From the NCBI GenBank assembly GCA_020186115.1, contig WSYJ01000009.1:124001-188000 (forward strand): a stretch of DNA of 64,000 nt, written 5' to 3'. Every line of letters starts with the position of its first letter. Position 1 is the stretch's first letter. A program made the position numbers and the translations under genes. Source of the stretch: Histomonas meleagridis. Taxonomy: Eukaryota > Parabasalia > Tritrichomonadida > Dientamoebidae. Shown here in pieces: positions 1-64,000 of this stretch. The notes beneath the pieces are model-generated. The model made no database searches, was not told the origin of the DNA, and worked only from the letters and a program-made list of their open reading frames with translations.

Positions 1-1180
1 ATCTTATGAAGGTCATACAGAAATAGTTAAATTACTTCTTGAACAAAAAGGAATTGATATTAATGCTAAAGATAAAATAAATTTAAATAATTTGAAATTT
101 CAAAATAATATTTGGAAATAATTTAAATTATTCAGAACAGCACTTATGTTTGCATCTAGAAATGGTTATACAGAAATAGTTAAATTACTTCTTGAACAAG
201 AAGGAATTGATATTAATGCTAAAGATATTTATTTGTTTTATTTGAAATTTATTTTAATAATTTGATATTTCAAAATAATATTTGGAAATTATTTAATACA
301 GCACTTATGAATGCATCTAGAGATGGACATATAGAAATAGTTAAATTACTTCTTGAACAAGAAGGAATTGATATTAATGCTAAAGATAATTTTTGCTTTC
401 ATAATTTGGTATTTCAAAATAATATTTGAAAATTATTTAAATTATTTGATACAGCACTTATGATAGCATCTTATGAAGGTCATACAGAAATAGTTAAATT
501 ACTTCTTGAACAAAAAGGAATTGATCTTAATGCTAAAGATAATTTTTGCTTTCATAATTTCTTATTTCAAAATAATATTTGGAAATTATTTAAATTATTT
601 AGAACAGCACTTTTTGAAGCATCTTATTATGGTTACACAGAAATAGTTAAATTACTTCTTGAACAAGAAGGAATTGATATTAATGCTAAAGATAATTTTT
701 GCTTTCATAATTTGGTATTTCAAAATAATATTTGAAAATTATTTAAATTATTTGATACAGCACTTATGATAGCATCTTATGAAGGTCATACAGAAATAGT
801 TAAATTACTTCTTGAACAAAAAGGAATTGATCTTAATGCTAAAGATAATTTTTGCTTTCATAATTTCTTATTTCAAAATAATATTTGGAAATTATTTAAA
901 TTATTTAGAACAGCACTTTTTGAAGCATCTTATTATGGTTACACAGAAATAGTTAAATTACTTCTTGAACAAGAAGGAATTGATATTAATAATAAAGATA
1001 TTTATTTGTTTTATTTGAAATTTATTTTAATAATTTAATATTTCAAAATAATATTTGGAAATTATTTAAATTATTTAATACACCACTTATGAATGCATCT
1101 GAAAATGGTAACACAGAAATAGTTAAATTACTTCTTGAAAAAAGATGGAATTGATATTAATGCTATAAATATTTATTTTT
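1..1180 (+). repeat. Ankyrin-module tandem array (left edge, continues outside window)
   Basis: Seen: modules beginning with the codons for T-A-L lie at 137, 298, 451, 604, 757, 910 and 1080, after a partial module at position 1. Spacings are 161, 153, 153, 153, 153 and 170 bp. Each module encodes about 30 residues of ankyrin type (T-A-L-x-x-A-S-x-x-G-H, then E-I-V-K-L-L-L-E-Q, then G-I-D-I-N-A-K-D). Between modules lies an AT-rich spacer sharing the core TTTCAAAATAATATTTG. In 153-bp units the spacer stays in frame except where TGA replaces TGG; in the 161- and 170-bp units the frame shifts. The last module (from 1080) has an extra A and is broken. The array therefore has no single open frame. 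It belongs to the same family as the loci at 4746, 39880 and 59986. Whether it is expressed is unknown. Confidence 0.85.
451..1062 (+). repeat. 306-bp tandem duplication inside the array (two 153-bp units each)
   Basis: The segments 451-756 and 757-1062 are direct repeats. They appear base-identical for roughly the first 230 bp, including variable codons of both modules, and diverge near 683 versus 989 (gct versus aat). Each copy carries two different modules (M-I-A-S-Y-E-G-H and F-E-A-S-Y-Y-G-Y). Such identity implies a recent duplication of a two-module block by unequal exchange or gene conversion. Confidence 0.85.
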
Positions 1181-4369: not shown

Positions 4370-4745
4370 ATGTTTAATAAAATTATAGATTATACAATTG
4401 GTTCATATGATAGTAATAGTTATAATAAAATTAATATAAATGTACCAGGTCCATTTACACGAAGATGTAGTTTAATAGTAAATTCATTAACAACAAATTG
4501 TAATATTGTAGTTATTGATGAAAATGATTATATTGAAATTAATAATGAAATATATTATTCTAAAAAATCATATTCAGATTTAAATTCACAATCTTTTGCT
4601 ACGATATTAAATGAATTAATAATTGATAGTGGGATACAGGTTGAAGTTGATGAAACTAATAGATTATATTTTTTGCAATGAAAATTCTTTTTATATAAAT
4701 GGTAGTTATAATATATTGCAATTAACAGTTATTAACTTATATGAT
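4370..4745 (+). pseudogene. Small Maverick-associated protein, frameshifted at its end
   Basis: An ATG at 4370 opens 103 codons with an Asn/Ser/Ile-rich composition (I-N-V-P-G-P-F-T-R-R-C early, then N-C-N-I-V-V-I-D). The frame closes at 4679-4681. In the +1-shifted frame the coding continues with N-E-N-S-F-Y-I-N-G-S-Y-N to about 4745, suggesting a one-base change at the T run near 4672. It is divergent from the polymerase and so probably belongs to the same element. I do not recognise its function; a virion or assembly role is only a guess. The sequence passes into a DUF3447/ankyrin gene after about 4745. Confidence 0.45.
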
Positions 4746-6775
4746 GAAAAATATGTCTTCTCATTTAACTTAATTCTTAGTCAGATAATATATTCATACT
4801 TTGTTTCATCTCCCAATGTTTGTGATATATATTTTGCATTTATGAAAAACATTGAAGCCAATGAAGAAATGCATCAAAATAAAATAAAAATATTAAATGC
4901 ATTTCAAAATTTTATCATCAGTAAAAACGCAAGAAGCAACATATCTCAAAGATAGAATGATAGAACATAACTTACTTAATCCAATTCTAATTCAAGATGA
5001 AAACAATCCATATTTTGCACATTATATGAAATTAGAGCAAATTGAAAGTATTTATCATAATAAATTTATTGATCAAATCATAAAAAATCATGACGAATTA
5101 TCAAAGAATGATTGGGATCTTCATAAGAAATTCAGTAAAGAAGGACATAATCTGAATAAAATTGCGAAAATAAATCGAAATGACGAAATAGAAAAACTTC
5201 AAGAAATTTCATCACAAACTGATTTCGACTATAATCAAATAATTGAATTATCACTTTATGAAAGATATTCATTAGTTAATGGGGAAAATGTTTCATTAAT
5301 TGATTATGGAGCTTTTTTTGGATCAATTAAATGTTTTAAATATTTATTTATGAATGATGCAAATATAGAAAAAAACATTTAAATATGCAATTGCAGGTGG
5401 AAATTTTGAAATCATTCATTTATGTGAGCAAAATCATTCATCATTTGAAGGAGCATATGAAGTTTCAATTATATATCAGCGGAATGATATTTTTAAATAT
5501 CTTTATGATAAAAAAATACAAGATTTAACAGAATTAGGAAAAACGTGTATATTATGTCACAATTATGAAATTTTATCATTTGTAATTGATAAAGGAATGA
5601 AAATTAATGATTTTCTAATTATTGATATAGTGAAAAACTGGAATATATTTCTTCTTAAGCATTTTTTAAAAGAAAAAGAAAATTCAGTTCCAAAAGATAT
5701 ATTATTATAAACTTCAATATATAAAAATTTTGAACTTGTTGAATATCTTCTTGAACAAGAAGGAATTGATGTTAATGCCAGAGATCAAAGTAACTTTTTT
5801 ACAACATATTTAAAAAATCTTTGTAATATTTAATACATTACTTATCATTTTATCAGAAAAATGTTATCTTGAAATTGTTCAATTACTTCTTAAAAAAAGA
5901 AGGAATTAATGTTAATATTAAACATGATTAAATAATTTAATCAAAATTTGCTTTTTATATTTAATATTTTTATATAATAAATGGAATATATTTTAAATAT
6001 TTTTCACAGCGCTTATGATTGCATCACAGTTATGTAAAACTGAAGTTGTTTATATGCTTCTTAAATATCCAGGAATAGAACTTAATAGTTGTGATAAATT
6101 CCAAATTTGTTTTTTACAATTAATATTAAATATTTAATATTTTTATATAAAATACGGAGTTTTTTTCAATGTAAACGAACAGCACTTATTTGGGCATCAG
6201 AAAATGGTTATACATCAATCGTTAAATTACTTATTGAACAAAAAGGAATTAATTTTAATGCACATGATTATATTTATTTCAATAACATAACGTGTAATAA
6301 TATATTTTTGAGTTTCTAAAAAATATAAGGAATTTTTCTTTAATATTTGAGACAGCATATTGATATTGTTCAATTATTACTTCAATCAAAACCAATCGAT
6401 ATTAATTGTAAAAATATTTTAATATTTTATTATGGATTTCATTTAAATGTGTGATGTTTATATATAAAAAATGGGGATTTTTTTTAAGTTATTTACACAT
6501 CACTTATGTTAGGAAGTAAAACACATCCACAAGTTGTTCAATTTCTTAGCGAACAAAAAGGAATCAAAATTAATGCAGTAAATATTTAAACCATTTTTTT
6601 TTCCTCATAACATAATATTTAAGATTTTATCAAACTCAATGAAATAGCGCTTTTATTATCTAATATGATTATACGAATGAAATTAAAATACTTATTGAAG
6701 CATAAGGAATTGATATCCAAAAGAAAGGATCAAGAAATCATAACATTACTTCAAGAACATTAAGAGATTTAAAAA
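4746..6775 (+). pseudogene. DUF3447/ankyrin repeat gene, old decayed copy lacking its start
   Basis: From about 4750 the translation matches the head domain of the better copy at 59986. Shared landmarks are P-Y-F-A-H-Y (about 5010), H-D-E-L-S-K-N-D-W-D-L-H-K-K, E-K-L-Q-E-I-S, E-R-Y-S-L-V-N and S-L-I-D-Y. Frameshifts occur near 4912 and 5375, and a TAA interrupts near 5708. Downstream, worn ankyrin modules can be read near 5835, 6010, 6180, 6346 and 6495. They are separated by diverged AT-rich spacers with stops (for example 5930-6008 and 6095-6178). The 5' end is replaced by Maverick sequence, so insertion or recombination removed the start. The last recognisable coding ends near 6775. DUF3447 and ankyrin proteins form a very large family in trichomonads; roles of individual members are not known. 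Confidence 0.75.
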
Positions 6776-7023
6776 TAAATATACTATAGACAATAAAAAA
6801 TTTTGTCTAAATTAGATTGGATTAATAAATGGATTTAAATCAACATGTATAAAATATCATATTGAACTGATTTTTTGTTTGATGTTTTTTTAATTCAAAT
6901 ACATTATATTATTATCACACTAATGTATACTTCAGTTCAGCAAAAAATAATTGAAATTTTCTACATAACGACCTTTATACAAACAAATTCAAAGGTTTTC
7001 AAAGGGGCTGAGGCATTGGAGAA

Positions 7024-34091: not shown

Positions 34092-36041
34092 ATGTCAGCA
34101 ATTGGTATTGATCTTGGTCCCACATATCGTTGTGTCGGTGTCTTCAGACACCGTCGTGTCGATATTATAGCAACTGATACGGGTAATCGCACATCCCCAT
34201 CTTATATGTTGCATTCACCGAAGATGAAAGACTTGTTGGTGATGCCGCAAAGAACCAAGCAGCCATGAATCCAACAAACACAGTATTTGATGCGCAGCGT
34301 ATGATTGGTCGTAAGTTTAGTGATCCAGTTGTTCAAAAAAGATATGCAACATTGGCCATTCAAAGGTTGTTCGTGGTGATGCAGATCGTCCAAGGATTCA
34401 AGTTCAATGGAAGGGTGAAACCAAACAATTCTATCCAGAAGAAATCTCAGCTATGGTTTTAGGTAAAATGAAGGAAATCGCCGAAAGCCAACTTTCCAAC
34501 AAAGTTACTGATGCTGTTGTTACAGTTCCAGCATATTTCAACGATGGTCAACGTCAAGCCACAAAAGATGCAGGGTGTTATTGCCGGATTAAATGTTCTT
34601 CGTATCATCAACGAACCAACAGCCGCTGCTATTGCATTTGGTCTTAACGAAAAATCTGATAACGAACGTCATGTTCTTATCTTCGATCTTGGCGGCGGTA
34701 CATTTGATGTTTCATTACTTGATATCGATGGCGGCATGTTCGAAGTGCGTGCCACAGCAGGTGATACACATCTTGGCGGTGAAGATTTTGATAATCGTAT
34801 GGTTAATTACTTCGCAGATCGTTTCCAAAAGAAGTTCAAATGCGACTTAAGACAATCGATACGTGCACTCCGTACATTACGAACAGCATGCGAACGTGCT
34901 AAGCGAACATTATCCACAGCCACATCCGCATCAATTGTCTGCGATTCATTATATGAAGGCCACGACTTTATGGATAACATCTCACGTGCTATGTTCGAGA
35001 ACTTAAATGATGAACTTTTCAGGTCAACAATGAATCCAGTCGCACAAGTTTTTAAGAGATGCGAACATGTCGAAGTCCGATGTCACCGATATTGTTCTTG
35101 TTGGAGGTTCATCGCGTATTCCACGTGTCCAACAATTGTTGCAAGACTTCTTCAACGGTAAGCAGCCATGTCGTGGTGTTGATCCTGATGAAGCAGTTGC
35201 ATATGGTGCAGCAGTTCAAGCAGCAATTATCAAAGGCGATACACATGAAGAAATCAAAGATATCTTATTGTTAGATGTTGCACCGCTTTCATTAGGTATC
35301 GAAACAGCAGGTGAAATTATGACAGTGCTGATTCCACGTAACACAACAATCCCATGCAAGAAGTCAAATGTCTTCACAACATTCTCCGATAACCAGCCTG
35401 CAGTTACAATCAAAGTTTATGAAGGAGAACGTTCACGAACACGCGATAACAACTTGCTTGGTACATTCGATTTAACAGGCATTCCGCCAGCACCACGCGG
35501 CGTGCCACAGATTGAAGTTACATTCGATGTTAACGCAGATGGTATTATGAACGTTTCGGCACAAGATAAGTCGACAGGTAACGTGAAGAAGATTACGATT
35601 AAGAATGAGAAAGGACGTCTTTCACAAGCAGATATCGACAAAATGGTTGCAGACGCAGAGAAGTACAAAGCACAAGATGAAGAAGTGCGTAAGAAAGTGG
35701 AAGCGAAGAACGCACTCGAAGGATACTGCTTCGGCGTACGCAACTCATTAAATCAAGAGCAGTTCGCTAACGCATTGTCACAATCAGACAAGGACACAAT
35801 CAACAAGGAAATCAATGACGCGCTCGCATGGATCGACGCTAACCAAGACGCAGACGTCGCTACAATCGAAGCGAAGCAGAAGGAACTCGAAGGCAAACTG
35901 ATGCCAATTATGCAATCGGCTTATCAACATGCGGCAGGCGGCGCACAAGGCGGAATGCCAGGCGCGAACATGCAAGGAGGAAGTGGAGCATCAGCAAATA
36001 GTGGACACTCATCAGGACCACGTGTTGAAGAAGTCGATTAA
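34092..36041 (+). pseudogene. Cytosolic Hsp70, reading frame broken by five insertions in its first half
   Basis: From ATG 34092 the protein matches cytosolic Hsp70 over its whole length, ending in the E-E-V-D tail. Frame changes lie near 34206 (+2), 34340 (+1, A run), 34364 (+1), 34575 (+1, G run) and 35050 (+1, T run). All are insertions and sum to six. From about 35067 to 36041 the frame is intact (324 residues: end of the nucleotide-binding domain, substrate-binding domain, lid). Conserved landmarks: [23 protein letters not shown], and the [11 protein letters not shown] linker region. The first phosphate loop reads G-I-D-L-G-P-T-Y-R where G-T-T-Y-S is normal, a change at a nucleotide-contacting position. 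Either a recent pseudogene or an assembly with homopolymer errors. GATCATTTTTTT before the ATG resembles an initiator. Confidence 0.85.
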
Positions 36042-59985: not shown

Positions 59986-61212
59986 ATGTCTAATGGTGAT
60001 TCGAACACCAAAATAATTGAAAATTCTAAATCACAGTATGTTGAAATCAATCTTCTAGTTAAACTTGAACATATCATATTTAATTTAACTGAAGAAAATC
60101 TAAATTTATCAATTGAACAAACAATGAAATTATTTGACCCAAAATTTCCTTATTCATGTAACTTAACTATTTGTGCTTTAGTATGTCATGCATTTTGTTC
60201 GAAAGTCAATGTAAATGATTTGTATTTAAGATATTTAGAATTAATTCAAACGAAAGAAGAAATTCAAAAAATTGATCCTAAAATATTAACAGTTTTTAAA
60301 ACCCAAACTTTTATACCATATTATTTAATAGAAAAAATGATATCGCAAAATCTAATAGATAAAAATATCACTAAAAACATTTTTTCACCTTATTTTGCTC
60401 ATTACAAAACAGAAAGAAGAGAAATCATAAAAATGAATTATTACCATCCATTATATGGTTCTTTTTTTAAAAATTATGATGAGCTTTCAAAGAATAATTG
60501 GGAACTTCATAAGAAATTAATTAGAGAAGGACATAATCCAAATGAAATTGCAAAAATAATTCGAAATGATGAAATAGAAAAACTTCAAGAAATATCAACA
60601 CAAACAAATTTTGATTTTAATAAAACAATTGAACCATCAATTTATGAAAGATATTCATTAGTTAATCAAAAACATGTTTCATTAATTGATTATGCAGCAT
60701 TTTTTTCTTCTGTTAAATGTTTTAAATATTTACTTATGAATGGCGCTAAAGTCGAAAACACAGGTAAATATGCAGTTGCAGGTGGAAATGAAGAAATCAT
60801 TCATTTATGTGAACAAAATCATTCATCATTTGAAGATGCATACGAAACTGCAATTAAATTTCATCAAAATGATATCTTCATATATTTATACGAATACAAA
60901 ATAAAGAAAATTGATAATTTAGAAGAATTAGGAAGGAAATGTATTTTTTATCATAATTATGAAATTTTTGCTTTTTTATTGAAAGAAGGAATGAAAATAA
61001 ATGATGATATTATTAACGAAACTTCAAGAATCGGAAATATATTTCTCGTAAAATCTTTTCTTAAAAAAAATCAAACACCAAAAGATATTTTAGTTTTTTC
61101 GTCAGAATCAGGAAACTTTGAACTTTTTAAATATATCATGGAACAAAAAATTGACGTAAACATTAAAAATATAATTTGTTTTAATAATTTAATGTTTCAA
61201 TATAATATTTGA
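59986..61212 (+). CDS. DUF3447/ankyrin family protein, head domain (best-preserved copy)
   Basis: The frame is open from before 59914 (TTG) to a TGA at 61210-61212; the first in-frame ATG is 59986 (M-S-N-G-D-S-N). The product is about 408 residues. Residues 20-190 are helical (S-I-E-Q-T-M-K-L-F-D-P-K-F-P). Then comes the shared head block N-Y-D-E-L-S-K-N-N-W-E-L-H-K-K, E-K-L-Q-E-I-S, E-R-Y-S-L-V-N and H-V-S-L-I-D-Y, followed by DUF3447-type degenerate ankyrin repeats (G-G-N-E-E-I-I-H-L-C-E-Q-N). The TGA falls inside the first spacer of the array that follows. The protein therefore either ends here, with a truncated ankyrin part, or continues if the spacer is removed from the RNA. Function is unknown; ankyrin repeats bind proteins. 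Confidence 0.75.
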   Translation: MSNGDSNTKIIENSKSQYVEINLLVKLEHIIFNLTEENLNLSIEQTMKLFDPKFPYSCNLTICALVCHAFCSKVNVNDLYLRYLELIQTKEEIQKIDPKILTVFKTQTFIPYYLIEKMISQNLIDKNITKNIFSPYFAHYKTERREIIKMNYYHPLYGSFFKNYDELSKNNWELHKKLIREGHNPNEIAKIIRNDEIEKLQEISTQTNFDFNKTIEPSIYERYSLVNQKHVSLIDYAAFFSSVKCFKYLLMNGAKVENTGKYAVAGGNEEIIHLCEQNHSSFEDAYETAIKFHQNDIFIYLYEYKIKKIDNLEELGRKCIFYHNYEIFAFLLKEGMKINDDIINETSRIGNIFLVKSFLKKNQTPKDILVFSSESGNFELFKYIMEQKIDVNIKNIICFNNLMFQYNI

Positions 61213-63660
61213 GAATTATTTAATATGTTTGATACAGCACTTATTTGTGCATCTTTAAATGGTCATATCGAAATAGTTAAATTACTTCTTGGCCAAAAAG
61301 GAATTGATGTTAATGCTAAAAATATTTATTTATTTTATTTAATATTTGTTTTAATTATTTTATATTTCTAAATAATATTTGGAAATTATTTAAAATATTA
61401 TGGACAGCACTTATATATGCATCTAGAAATTGTTATATAGAAATAGTTAAATTACTTCTTGAACAAAAAGGAATTGATATTAATGCTAAAGGTATTTATT
61501 TATTTTATTTAATATTTGTTTTAATAATTTAATAATTTTAAATAATATTTGGAAATTATTTAAGTTATTTTATACAGCACTTAGAGAAGCATCTTGGTAT
61601 GGTCATATAGAAATAGTTAAATTACTTCTTGAACAAGAAGGAATTGATATTAATGCTAAAGATAAAATTTATTTGTTTTATTTGATGTTTATTTTAATAA
61701 TTTTATATTTCAAAATAATAATTGGAAATTATTTAAAATATTTTTTACAGCACTTATATCTGCATCTAGAAATGGTCATACAGAAATAGTTGAATTACTT
61801 CTTGAACAAGAAGGAATTGATATTAATGCTAAAGGTATTTATTTATTTTATTTAATATTTATTTTAGTAATTTAATAATTTTAAATAATATTTGGAAATT
61901 ATTTAAGTTATTTTATACAGCACTTTTTGAAGCATCATCAAAAGGTCATACAGAAATAGTTAAATTACTTCTTGAACAAGAAGGAATTGATATTAATGCT
62001 AAAGATATTTATTTGTTTTATTTGATGTTTATTTTAATAATTTTATATTTCAAAATAATAATTGGAAATTATTTAAATTATTTGAAACAGCACTTATTTA
62101 TGCATCTTCAGAAGGTCATACAGAAATAGTTAAATTACTTCTTGAACAAGAAGGAATTGATATAAATGCTAAAGATATTTATTTGTTTTATTTGATATTT
62201 GTTTTTATAATTTCGTATTTCAAAATAACAATTGGGAATTATTTAAATTATTATGGACAGCACTTATTTATGCATCTTCAAAAGGTCATACAGAAATAGT
62301 TAAATTACTTCTTGAACAAAAAGGAATTGATATTAATGCAAAAGATAAAATTTATTTGTTTTATTTGATGTTTATTTTAATAATTTTATATTTCAAAATA
62401 ATATTTGGAAATTATTTAAATTATTTGAAACAGCACTTATGAATGCATCATCAAAAGGTCATACAGAAATAGTTAAATTACTTCTTGAACAAGAAGGAAT
62501 TGATATTAATATCAAAAATATTTATTTGTTTTATTTAATATTTATTTTAATAATTTCATATTTCAAAATAACAATTGGGAATTATTTAAATTATTATGGA
62601 CAGCACCTATTTATGCATCTTCAAAAGGTTATACAGAAATAGTTAAATTACTTCTTGAACAAAAAGGAATTGATATTAATGCTAAAGGTATTTATTTATT
62701 TTATTTAATATTTATTTTAATAATTTAATAATTTTAAATAATATTTGGAAATTATTTAAGTTATTTTATACAGCACTTTTTGAAGCATCATCAAAAGGTC
62801 ATACAGAAATAGTTAAATTACTTCTTGAACAAGAAGGAATTGATATTAATGCTAAAAATATTTATTTGTTTTATTTAATATTTGTTTTTATAATTTCGTA
62901 TTTCAAAATAATAATTGGAAATTATTTAAATTATTTGAAACAGCACTTATTTATGCATCTTCAGAAGGTCATACAGAAATAGTTAAATTACTTCTTGAAC
63001 AAGAAGGAATTGATATTAATACTAAAAATATTTATTTGTTTTATTTAATATTTGTTTTTATAATTTCATATTTCAAAATAATAATTGGAAATTATTTAAA
63101 TTATTTAATACAGCACTTATGTCTGCATCTTCAGAAGGTCATACAGACTTATTTAAATTACTTCTTGAACAAGAAGGAATTGATATTAATGCAAAAGATA
63201 TTTATTTATTTTATTTATTATTTGTTTTAATAATTTTATATTTCAAAATAATAATTGGAAATTATTTAAATTATTTGGAACAGCACTTATTAGAGCATCT
63301 TTTTATGGTCAGATAGAAATAGTTAAATTACTTCTTGAACAAGAAGGAATTGATATAAATGCAAAAGATATTTATTTGTTTTATTTATTATTTGTTTTAA
63401 TAATTTAATATTTCAAAATAATATTTAGAAATTATTTAAATTATTTGACACAGCACTTATTTATGCATCTGAAAATGGCCATACAGAAATAGTTAAATTA
63501 CTTCTTGAACAAGAAGGAATTGATATTAATGTTAAAGATGTAATTTATTTTAATAATTTGATATTTCAAAATAATATTTGAAAATTATTTAAATTATTTT
63601 ATACAGCACTTATTTATGCATCTTCAGAAGGTCATACAGAAATAGTTAAATTACTTACTT
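61213..63660 (+). repeat. Array of 15 ankyrin modules separated by frame-breaking spacers
   Basis: T-A-L module starts lie at 61234, 61404, 61574, 61747, 61917, 62087, 62257, 62430, 62600, 62770, 62940, 63110, 63280, 63450 and 63603. Steps are 170 bp except two of 173 and the last of 153. Every complete module has an uninterrupted 30-codon block with no stop or indel. The roughly 80-bp spacers contain stops in the reading frame and change frame by two. Spacers share a 5' part (ATTTATTTGTTTTATTTGAT or close) and a 3' part around TTTCAAAATAATAATTGG followed by AAATTATTTAAATTATTT. Residues 4, 5, 8 and 9 of the module vary (for example I-Y/S-E, F-E/S-K, R-E/W-Y, I-R/F-Y) while the remainder is nearly constant. 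The array stops mid-module at about 63658. It follows the head domain at 59986 in the same orientation. Confidence 0.88.
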
Positions 63661-63680
63661 ACTCTATCAATTGATAGAGT
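63661..63680. repeat. Perfect 20-bp palindrome at the end of the ankyrin array
   Basis: ACTCTATCAATTGATAGAGT equals its own reverse complement. It lies a few bases after the point where the last ankyrin module is cut (after ...AAATTACTT). It may mark the end of a mobile element or a recombination point; only the palindrome itself is seen. Confidence 0.7.
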
Positions 63681-63734
63681 GGTTCCGACCAATTATTGTC
63701 ACAAAAAATAGCCAAGTAAAGTTAAGAATTTTAC

Positions 63735-63908
63735 TTAACGTTCATTCTTATTATTTTCTTTTTTTGACTCTGGAGAGCTATAAGAATAATATTTCATCAA
63801 TTTATCGAGATCACCGCCAAAGCCACTGCTTAGATCTTTAAGTTTATTATCTTCTTTCTTTGTCCAAGCACAATATTTTCTTCCAGATTGATATATTTTA
63901 TGTCTTCC
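63735..63908 (-). pseudogene. Myb/SANT-like protein C-terminal remnant
   Basis: The minus frame ends at TAA 63735-63737 and is open to a TGA at 63909-63911. It reads G-R-K-Y-C-A-W-T-K-K-E-D-N-K-L then G-G-D-L-D-K-L-M-K-Y-Y and a Lys/Glu/Asn tail. W-T-x-x-E-D followed by a second hydrophobic helix is the start of a Myb/SANT repeat, a family common in trichomonads, where some members bind core promoter elements. There is no ATG in the frame. Upstream sequence looks related but out of frame or stopped, so it is probably a remnant or belongs to a gene broken by indels. The window ends at 64000. Confidence 0.4.
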
Positions 63909-64000
63909 TCATATGTGAGATTGAGAAAATGGGTTCAACGTTATGCACTATGTGCTGCATACAGCACCATTACTTTTATTATGTTTTTTTCCAGAAATTC

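What the first reader, a model, noticed from the sequence alone, without database searches (positions are those of the whole stretch)
61213..63660. Ankyrin modules kept open while the spacers between them break the frame
Fourteen complete modules in a row, each a 90-bp block in one frame, carry no stop and no indel. Every one of the spacers between them contains stops, and all but the last shift the frame by two. A decaying pseudogene should lose modules and spacers alike. The pattern invites three explanations: the spacers are removed from the RNA (mini-introns of an unusual kind), the modules are donor cassettes for gene conversion into a complete ankyrin gene elsewhere, or the array is a very young satellite. 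No system of this kind is known to me for trichomonads.
Basis: partly seen in the sequence, partly recalled or inferred. Interest (0 to 1): 0.82.

Follow-up and report, generated by a model that had tools for sequence, protein, structure and literature searches.

The report
Tiny interruptions between single codons
In a poultry parasite, hundreds of ankyrin gene repeats are cut up by tiny 17-letter inserts that leave single codons standing between them, and the spared codons behave as one protein-coding frame, so the cell probably takes the inserts out by a route not yet described.

Summary
The window lies in the Histomonas meleagridis genome. Each spacer is a row of AT-rich 17-nt elements with one codon between neighbours: GAT-[17]-NNN-[17]-NNN-[17]-GGA-[17]-NNN-ACA GCA CTT. 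The spared codons restore the canonical ankyrin hairpin D-x-x-G-x-T and a 34-residue repeat. From ATG 59986 the window gene reads as one open frame with 58 elements to a stop at 63672. In 259 distinct 170-bp units the spared codons carry 0 stops in 1036 (56 expected from column frequencies), the modules 1 (137 expected). Between nearest copies the spared codons change about eight times faster than the elements, 225 of 229 changes altering the amino acid. An exact pattern found no spacer-free copy, against 1,214 with spacers. Eight of 12 related metagenome ORFs end at the same point. Best reading: working genes whose elements are removed, most likely from the RNA, by an unknown route. The elements lack GT-AG and CTAAC; ribosome bypassing or frameshifting gets no clear support. 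Donor-cassette and satellite readings do not explain the coding signal. There is no transcript evidence.

The parts
59986..63674 (+). whole gene as proposed: head, ankyrin modules, 58 elements of 17 nt, in-frame TGA at 63672-63674
   Evidence: parser from ATG 59986; layout [396,1,1,31,(1,1,1,31 or 32)...,14]+10 codons; a looser element model picks 61 elements
59986..61173 (+). head: 396 codons without interruption, DUF3447 and Ank_2
   Evidence: Pfam DUF3447 E 2e-11, Ank_2 E 3.7e-06 on 59986-61161
61174..61233 (+). first spacer: elements 61174-61190, 61194-61210, 61214-61230; spared codons AAT, GAG, GAT
61234..61323 (+). ankyrin module 1
   Evidence: no stop
61324..61403 (+). spacer: elements 61324-61340, 61344-61360, 61364-61380, 61384-61400, single codons between and after
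61404..61493 (+). ankyrin module 2
   Evidence: no stop
61494..61573 (+). spacer: elements 61494-61510, 61514-61530, 61534-61550, 61554-61570
61574..61663 (+). ankyrin module 3
   Evidence: no stop
61664..61746 (+). 83-bp spacer (one extra codon): elements 61667-61683, 61687-61703, 61707-61723, 61727-61743
61747..61836 (+). ankyrin module 4
   Evidence: no stop
61837..61916 (+). spacer: elements 61837-61853, 61857-61873, 61877-61893, 61897-61913
61917..62006 (+). ankyrin module 5
   Evidence: no stop
62007..62086 (+). spacer: elements 62007-62023, 62027-62043, 62047-62063, 62067-62083
62087..62176 (+). ankyrin module 6
   Evidence: no stop; its block 62084-62176 matches Pfam Ank E 2e-09
62177..62256 (+). 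spacer: elements 62177-62193, 62197-62213, 62217-62233, 62237-62253
62257..62346 (+). ankyrin module 7
   Evidence: no stop; block 62254-62349 Ank E 2.4e-10
62347..62429 (+). 83-bp spacer: elements 62350-62366, 62370-62386, 62390-62406, 62410-62426
62430..62519 (+). ankyrin module 8
   Evidence: no stop
62520..62599 (+). spacer: elements 62520-62536, 62540-62556, 62560-62576, 62580-62596
62600..62689 (+). ankyrin module 9
   Evidence: no stop
62690..62769 (+). spacer: elements 62690-62706, 62710-62726, 62730-62746, 62750-62766
62770..62859 (+). ankyrin module 10
   Evidence: no stop
62860..62939 (+). spacer: elements 62860-62876, 62880-62896, 62900-62916, 62920-62936
62940..63029 (+). ankyrin module 11
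   Evidence: no stop
63030..63109 (+). spacer: elements 63030-63046, 63050-63066, 63070-63086, 63090-63106
63110..63199 (+). ankyrin module 12
   Evidence: no stop
63200..63279 (+). spacer: elements 63200-63216, 63220-63236, 63240-63256, 63260-63276
63280..63369 (+). ankyrin module 13
   Evidence: no stop
63370..63449 (+). spacer: elements 63370-63386, 63390-63406, 63410-63426, 63430-63446
63450..63539 (+). ankyrin module 14
   Evidence: no stop
63540..63602 (+). 63-bp spacer with three elements: 63543-63559, 63563-63579, 63583-63599
63603..63674 (+). truncated module 15 ending at in-frame TGA 63672-63674

Best explanation
59986-63674 is one protein-coding gene: a DUF3447/ankyrin head followed by about 15 ankyrin repeats of 34 residues. 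At the hairpin of every repeat (D-x-x-G-x-T) the DNA is interrupted, here by three or four AT-rich elements of 17 nt, placed between whole codons, so that x, x, G and x stand as single codons. To make the protein the elements must be taken out or skipped. Most likely they are excised from the RNA as ultra-short intron-like pieces, usually with A at the 5' end and UU at the 3' end. Shown from sequence: element positions and length; coding selection on modules and on the isolated codons; the genome-wide spread. Suggested by relatives: the same break point in another species. Inferred: that removal happens, that it happens in RNA, and by what machinery. My split: elements are skipped or removed and the spared codons form one frame, about 0.9; at the RNA level in particular, about 0.65.
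For: Four spared codons in 259 distinct 170-bp units: 0 stops in 1036, 56 expected from column frequencies; module codons 1 stop, 137 expected; seven triplets shifted by one base have about as many stops as expected. Units wholly open in this reading 258 of 259, column-shuffled 117.5+-5.8; runs of four or more consecutive such units wholly open 27 of 28. Spared codons give [D/N]-[NKDE..]-[YDN..]-G (232 of 259)-x, then T-A-L, the residues missing at the start of the module pieces' match to Pfam Ank (profile positions 3 or 4 to 32 or 33 of 33, three pieces). Nearest-copy test, 152 pairs: conserved module codons N/S 0.26 of expectation, stops 0 against 55.8; spared codons 225 non-synonymous, 4 synonymous, 0 stops against 88.1, 6.9, 16.9; per-site change 0.179 there, 0.023 in elements, 0.026 at fourfold sites. 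Unit lengths fit 102+3m+17k in 334 of 364 with m of -1, 0 or 1. Window gene: 58 elements, no stop from ATG to 63672. 25 of 41 arrays are traversed to the last module with 17-nt elements: 8 of them from an ATG at least 600 nt upstream of the first module hit, 8 from the edge of the fetched piece, 9 from a nearer ATG. By the same criterion, read from the printed ends, 4 of 41 with 16 nt and 0 of 41 with 18 nt (those models are the 17-nt one with a middle position dropped or added). Relatives of the head in metagenomes: 8 of the 12 aligned ORFs end within two residues of the point where the first element begins. Two Tritrichomonas foetus relatives run on into ankyrin repeats.
Against: No transcript or peptide data were at hand, and neither protein search returned a long H. 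meleagridis protein with these repeats. GT...AG occurs in 1 of 1036 elements, CTAAC in 0 of 1036; U2 and U6 carry the usual recognition sequences. Element-like 17-mers outside the arrays are at chance level (6 against 3, 5, 6 in Markov controls, 118 kb), odd for a general splicing system. Elements are no more conserved than module silent sites, so their own function is not shown. 16 of 41 arrays were not traversed to the end (the window gene is counted there because its last module is truncated). One of 88 spared codons in the 22 distinct 153-bp units is a stop. Exceptions to 17 nt, by eye: an 18-nt variant and an 8-nt remnant in 171- and 161-bp units, a 14-nt one in L079. The held-out locus L077 fails after one element. 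The spacer frame that leads into the next module is wholly open in 195 of 259 units, more than the shuffled 171.6+-3.6. Shuffled columns ignore relatedness. Whether the metagenome ORFs end by a stop or by a contig end was not seen; only P0001 was tested against this genome (best 60%).
Confidence: 0.65

Rival explanations
1. The elements stay in the mRNA and the ribosome skips each one (bypassing, as with mitochondrial byps), or shifts frame by -1 once per element or once per unit.
For: Frame arithmetic allows it. One -1 slip per element would be readable in 248 of 259 units, one per unit in 219 of 259. The frame into the next module is wholly open in 195 of 259 units, against 171.6+-3.6 shuffled.
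Against: The two slip counts equal those of shuffled columns (248.1+-2.0; 220.6+-4.2). Stops in pseudo-codons of the elements are as frequent as expected (20 against 20.1). Takeoff and landing triplets match no more often than chance (1, 2, 5, 0 of 259 against 1.0, 2.5, 6.4, 0.0). With one slip per unit 14 of 28 runs are open, against 27 of 28 with removal. It would need about 58 near-perfect events per protein in the window gene.
Confidence: 0.12
2. Silent donor modules that are copied by gene conversion into a complete ankyrin gene elsewhere.
For: Units are strongly homogenised between loci, so exchange between arrays is likely.
Against: No spacer-free copy of this module junction was found (0 for gap 0-30 against 1,214 for gap 50-80; exact patterns only). 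Single codons between elements are kept stop-free, which a 90-bp donor tract would not require. ORFs with contiguous Ank_2 matches exist, but I did not test whether their modules match these.
Confidence: 0.05
3. A young satellite or dead array, open only because copies are recent.
For: Units are alike and tandem; arrays can be long (33 module hits in one) and 20-bp steps are multiplied in L079.
Against: Between nearest copies the modules show N/S of 0.26 of expectation and no stops where 55.8 are expected, and the spared codons show 225 amino acid changes and no stop. Heads of the family differ at 42% of residues (median) and 100 of 110 head matches have no stop. The worn copy at 4370-6800 looks quite different.
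Confidence: 0.06
4. The elements are removed at the DNA level, so that an element-free copy is expressed in some stage or nucleus.
For: Precise short AT-rich insertions inside codon runs recall the eliminated sequences of ciliates (recalled, not tested).
Against: No element-free form in the assembly by exact pattern. Parabasalids are not known to me to have such a stage (recalled).
Confidence: 0.04

Closest known systems
Mikrocytid spliceosomal introns (Mikrocytos mackini, Paramikrocytos canceri; PMC10245619, passages seen)
   Same: nearly fixed length of 16 or 17 nt; conserved sequence; parasite genome
   Different: those are called spliceosomal, 224 predicted introns in 179 genes; here A...TT ends, about 60 elements in one gene separated by single codons, and found in one gene family only
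Trichomonad type B spliceosomal introns (T. vaginalis, about 25 nt, shortest 23; PMC12316389, passages seen)
   Same: short, T-rich; the L079 form ATATGTTTTAATAATTT looks like a shortened GTATGT...CTAAC...ACAG with G to A and C to T (inference)
   Different: GT/AG is called universal there, with a branch site fused to the 3' end; both are missing here. T. vaginalis has 63 introns, one per gene
Mitochondrial byps and T4 gene 60 bypassing (byps: PMC4592705 passage; details recalled)
   Same: many short non-coding blocks inside reading frames
   Different: no takeoff/landing match; nuclear genes; fixed 17 nt
DUF3447-ankyrin proteins of Tritrichomonas foetus (P0017, P0019)
   Same: homologous head followed by ankyrin repeats
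   Different: annotated proteins run on without interruption

Membership tests
Spliceosomal introns (trichomonad type) | GT...AG ends | tested here: not met
   1 of 1036 elements has both; 35 of 1036 start with GT, 4 end with AG
Spliceosomal introns (trichomonad type) | branch site CTAAC fused to the 3' end | tested here: not met
   CTAAC in 0 and CTAA in 9 of 1036 elements; one diverged element in a 190-bp unit of C74 does hold CTAAC; the motif ACTAACACACAG has 3 matches in the genome against 2 control
Spliceosomal introns (trichomonad type) | a spliceosome in the organism | tested here: met
   Prp8 domain in an ORF of 2333 aa, two U2 genes and one U6 candidate just under the gathering score (43.7 of 44), with GUAGUA and ACAGAGA intact
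Spliceosomal introns (trichomonad type) | absence from mature mRNA | not testable with these tools
   no reads available
Translational bypassing elements (byps) | matching takeoff and landing codons | tested here: not met
Translational bypassing elements (byps) | element retained in mRNA | not testable with these tools
   no reads available
Ankyrin repeat proteins | repeat of about 33 residues with D-x-x-G-x-T-[AP]-L hairpin | tested here: met
Satellite or pseudogene array | no coding constraint | tested here: not met
Gene-conversion donor cassettes | complete recipient gene with the same modules | tested here: inconclusive
   0 spacer-free junctions by exact pattern; the contiguous ankyrin ORFs were not compared module by module

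The most novel reading that the evidence does not exclude
A new kind of RNA excision, or an extreme spliceosomal variant, removes tens of 17-nt A...UU elements per transcript and leaves single-codon exons, in perhaps more than 100 genes of one parasite family. The codons so isolated are the hypervariable hairpin positions of an ankyrin binding surface. The gene family would then be a natural, fast-diversifying repertoire of binders, in which each contact codon sits alone between near-identical 17-nt tracts that let it be exchanged or multiplied in 20-bp steps (as in L079).
Probability: 0.4. Interest if true: 0.95.

Novelty: categorically new. Interest (0 to 1): 0.86.

Why it matters
If the elements are removed, a eukaryotic cell handles dozens of 17-nt pieces per transcript without GT-AG or a recognisable branch site and keeps exons of three bases, beyond what I know of splicing. 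It would also mean that a large gene family of a poultry parasite is hard to see for ordinary gene prediction, and that its probable binding residues evolve under strong diversifying selection. The question can be tested with RNA reads that already exist.

Tried and rejected
One intron per spacer: an in-frame excision of 77 nt is possible, but it would discard x, x and G, whose codons lack stops. RNA secondary structure of four spacers: no clear signal (z -0.15, -1.22, -1.71, -0.78). Search for 17-nt junctions in other genes by coding potential alone: not informative, counts much the same at 11, 14, 17, 20 and so on. Trichomonad intron patterns: GTATGT-N4-34-CTAACACACAG 0; GTATGT...CTAAC...ACAG 5 against 10 control, three of the five looking by eye like T-rich type B introns of 23-25 nt. 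Hairpin residues of element-free ankyrin genes of the same genome as a yardstick: of five loci (L070-L074) only L072 gave repeats matching my strict motif, four of them, too few to compare. Hsp70 at 34.5-36.0 kb checked as a second interrupted gene: rejected, by eye it has single-base shifts, not 17-nt elements. Viral contigs: no relatives. Bacterial genome contigs: one contaminant contig with a head that is cut before any array. Linkage between spared codons: weak to moderate (z 0.4 to 3.2 among codons 108, 128, 168), up to 11.9 between neighbouring module codons. The first merging script stopped on a wrong assumption about locus orientation; redone. Literature: one search found no paper; some searches listed papers, none about such elements as far as titles and abstract starts tell.

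Full report
Where it is. The genome holding the window has 43,276,120 bases in 121 contigs; contig C120 has 3,384,422 bases. The genome paper of Histomonas meleagridis gives 3,384,422 as the largest contig of the virulent strain and 43.4 Mb in 187 contigs in total (PMC8529796, passages seen). A protein named Histomonas meleagridis in the databases lies on a contig of that length (P0012). I take the organism as settled. The same passages say that introns are scarce, 573 predicted, at most one per gene; the word ankyrin does not occur in that paper's main text.

The 14 modules, their lengths, their openness and the frame shifts are as described. The statement on stops needs a limit: 6 of 14 spacers hold a stop in the upstream frame, 2 of 14 in the frame two bases on, 14 of 14 in the third frame.

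How widespread. The exact junction pattern with a gap of 50-80 has 1,214 matches in the genome with no control match; a near-identical pattern with a gap of 0-30 has none. I analysed about 205 kb, the 64-kb window included, chosen mostly by DNA similarity to the window array or by the exact pattern, so biased towards similar arrays. nhmmer finds 413 module hits there, in 41 arrays of at least three units. Spacings are 170 (279), 153 (24), 173 (18), 150 (5), 190 (4) and 34 others between 146 and 174; eight spacings outside 140-195 were dropped.

The grid. Column by column, 259 distinct 170-bp units show four conserved 17-mers at 91-107, 111-127, 131-147 and 151-167, with triplets at 108-110, 128-130, 148-150 and 168-170 between and after them. 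Three of these triplets are hypervariable (20, 23 and 20 types); the third is GGA in 225 of 259. The module itself has hypervariable codons at 10-15 and 22-27. Placed after GAT, the spared codons read D-x-x-G-x-T-A-L. Unit lengths follow 102+3m+17k in 336 of 364 with m between -2 and 2 and in 334 with m between -1 and 1. The 153-bp units mostly lack the first element; the 190-bp units have five.

Is it coding? Expected stops were computed from independent columns and compared with the count. Spared codons: 0, 0, 0, 0 against 9.5, 16.9, 1.9, 27.6. Modules: 1 against 137.2. Triplets shifted by one base: about as expected. With columns shuffled, 117.5+-5.8 units would be open in this reading; 258 are. 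In the 22 distinct 153-bp units one of 88 spared codons is a stop, in five 150-bp units none of 15. This null ignores relatedness, so I also compared 152 nearest-neighbour pairs, with the mutation spectrum taken from the elements. Conserved module codons have N/S of 0.26 of expectation and 0 stops against 55.8. The variable module codons and the spared codons change at 0.173 and 0.179 per site, against 0.023 in the elements and 0.026 at fourfold sites, mostly to other amino acids (199 to 19 and 225 to 4), never to a stop. Pseudo-codons inside elements have 20 stops against 20.1 expected. So the codons are under selection as codons, also those that stand alone between two 17-mers. Their positions, D-x-x-G-x-T and A-S-x-x-G-H, are among those randomised in designed ankyrin repeat binders (recalled), which fits selection on a binding surface.

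Whole genes. A parser that allows only sense codons and 17-mers like the four consensus elements runs from ATG 59986 through 396 head codons and 58 elements to 63641, and the frame then stays open for ten codons to TGA at 63672. Other arrays do the same, for example C5:252000 with 59 elements and C1:850490 with 47, both to an in-frame stop. With a looser element model (which picks 61 elements in the window gene) 25 of 41 arrays are traversed to their last module: 8 from an ATG at least 600 nt upstream of the first module hit, 8 from the edge of the fetched piece, 9 from a nearer ATG. By the same criterion, read from the printed ends, 4 of 41 are with 16-nt and 0 of 41 with 18-nt elements. Of five loci chosen only by their head (L075-L079), L076, L078 and L079 run through 16, 30 and 18 elements (in L078 two blocks of three elements seem to be read as codons), L075 through 4 before its array is cut short, and L077 fails after one. 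In L079 the 17-mer plus one codon is multiplied in tandem, 6 and 12 elements in one hairpin, with codons such as GTA, GAA, GGA, AAA, AGA, TAT and no stop among those printed.

Age and exchange. The head gave 110 matches from 105 scored candidates of 2,401, a lower bound; most are 57-67% identical, one is 91%, and 100 of the 110 rows have no stop. Between 11 genes the heads share a median of 58% of residues and 75% of fourfold sites, while elements share 92% and module fourfold sites 93%. The repeat units are thus homogenised between loci, elements included; conservation of the elements does not by itself show that they do something. The metagenome relative P0001 has at best 60% identity to this genome and so comes from another species; the others were not tested that way. 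Of the 12 relatives that I aligned (of 40 hits), 8 end within two residues of the place where the first element begins (NAKDI and the like), three run on for a dozen or more residues, and one has a further uninterrupted repeat first. Whether they end by a stop or a contig end was not shown, but a shared end point makes contig ends unlikely. Their DNA was out of reach. The interruption is therefore probably older than the species. Two Tritrichomonas foetus relatives continue into ankyrin repeats.

How could it work? The elements must be removed or skipped. Skipping by the ribosome: the openness to a -1 slip per element or per unit equals that of shuffled columns, and takeoff and landing triplets do not match. 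One result leans the other way: the spacer frame into the next module is wholly open in 195 units against 171.6+-3.6 in shuffles, which I ascribe to related units but did not prove. Excision from RNA is left as the simplest route. Against ordinary splicing: GT-AG in 1 and CTAAC in 0 of 1036 elements, no clear RNA fold, while U2 and U6 look standard and the Prp8 ORF is intact. The trichomonad 3' motif is at background in the genome, and only about three type B-like introns turned up, in a search whose total was below its control. The L079 form ATATGTTTTAATAATTT resembles a shortened type B intron with G to A and C to T changes, so descent from such introns is possible (inference). Elements outside the arrays are at chance level in 118 kb.

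Within the window. Array 1 (1-1165) belongs to a gene whose head begins outside the window (L069). From that head the strict parser runs through 14 elements and stops near window position 307, where an element is shortened; starting at the window edge, the looser one passes the whole array. A decayed copy lies at 4370-6800. A third array, 41912-39880 on the minus strand, has a broken head, while its repeats are still traversed by the looser parser with 26 elements.

Limits. No reads, peptides or relatives' array DNA were available. Boundaries of the elements rest on the codons, not on cleavage data. 16 of 41 arrays did not parse to the end, from decay, diverged elements or the edge of the fetched piece; I did not sort these causes. 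I made no joined protein.

Noticed in passing
1-1165 (+): Second ankyrin array of the same kind, mostly 153-bp units with three elements; its head lies upstream of the window (L069). One unit has a shortened fourth element, where the strict parser stops.
   Followed up: partly
4370-6800 (+): Decayed copy of the same gene family by eye: frameshifted head, worn modules and spacers. A useful pseudogene control.
   Followed up: partly
41912-39880 (-): Third array; the head (DUF3447) is broken, while the repeat part still parses with 26 elements in the looser model.
   Followed up: partly
34450-36041 (+): Hsp70 gene split over two overlapping ORFs, by eye through single-base shifts in two places: pseudogene or assembly error.
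   Followed up: partly
63672-64000 and L075 after the array: The same non-repeat sequence follows two different truncated arrays whose heads are 91% identical (segmental duplication), joined at different points of the module.
   Followed up: no
L079 409-1900: 20-bp units (17-mer plus one codon) expanded in tandem inside single ankyrin hairpins.
   Followed up: partly
L080 (bacterial MAG contig CALUSQ010000040.1): A eukaryote-like contig binned into a Gastranaerophilales genome; it carries the same head as metagenome protein P0003 (by eye) and a transposase-like ORF.
   Followed up: partly
whole genome: The trichomonad 3' intron motif ACTAACACACAG is at background level; only about three type B-like introns of 23-25 nt were found, although U2, a U6 candidate and Prp8 are present.
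   Followed up: partly
whole genome: Of the many head ORFs only one named H. meleagridis protein (labelled caskin) came up in the protein search within its length limits; most of the family may be missing from the annotation.
   Followed up: no
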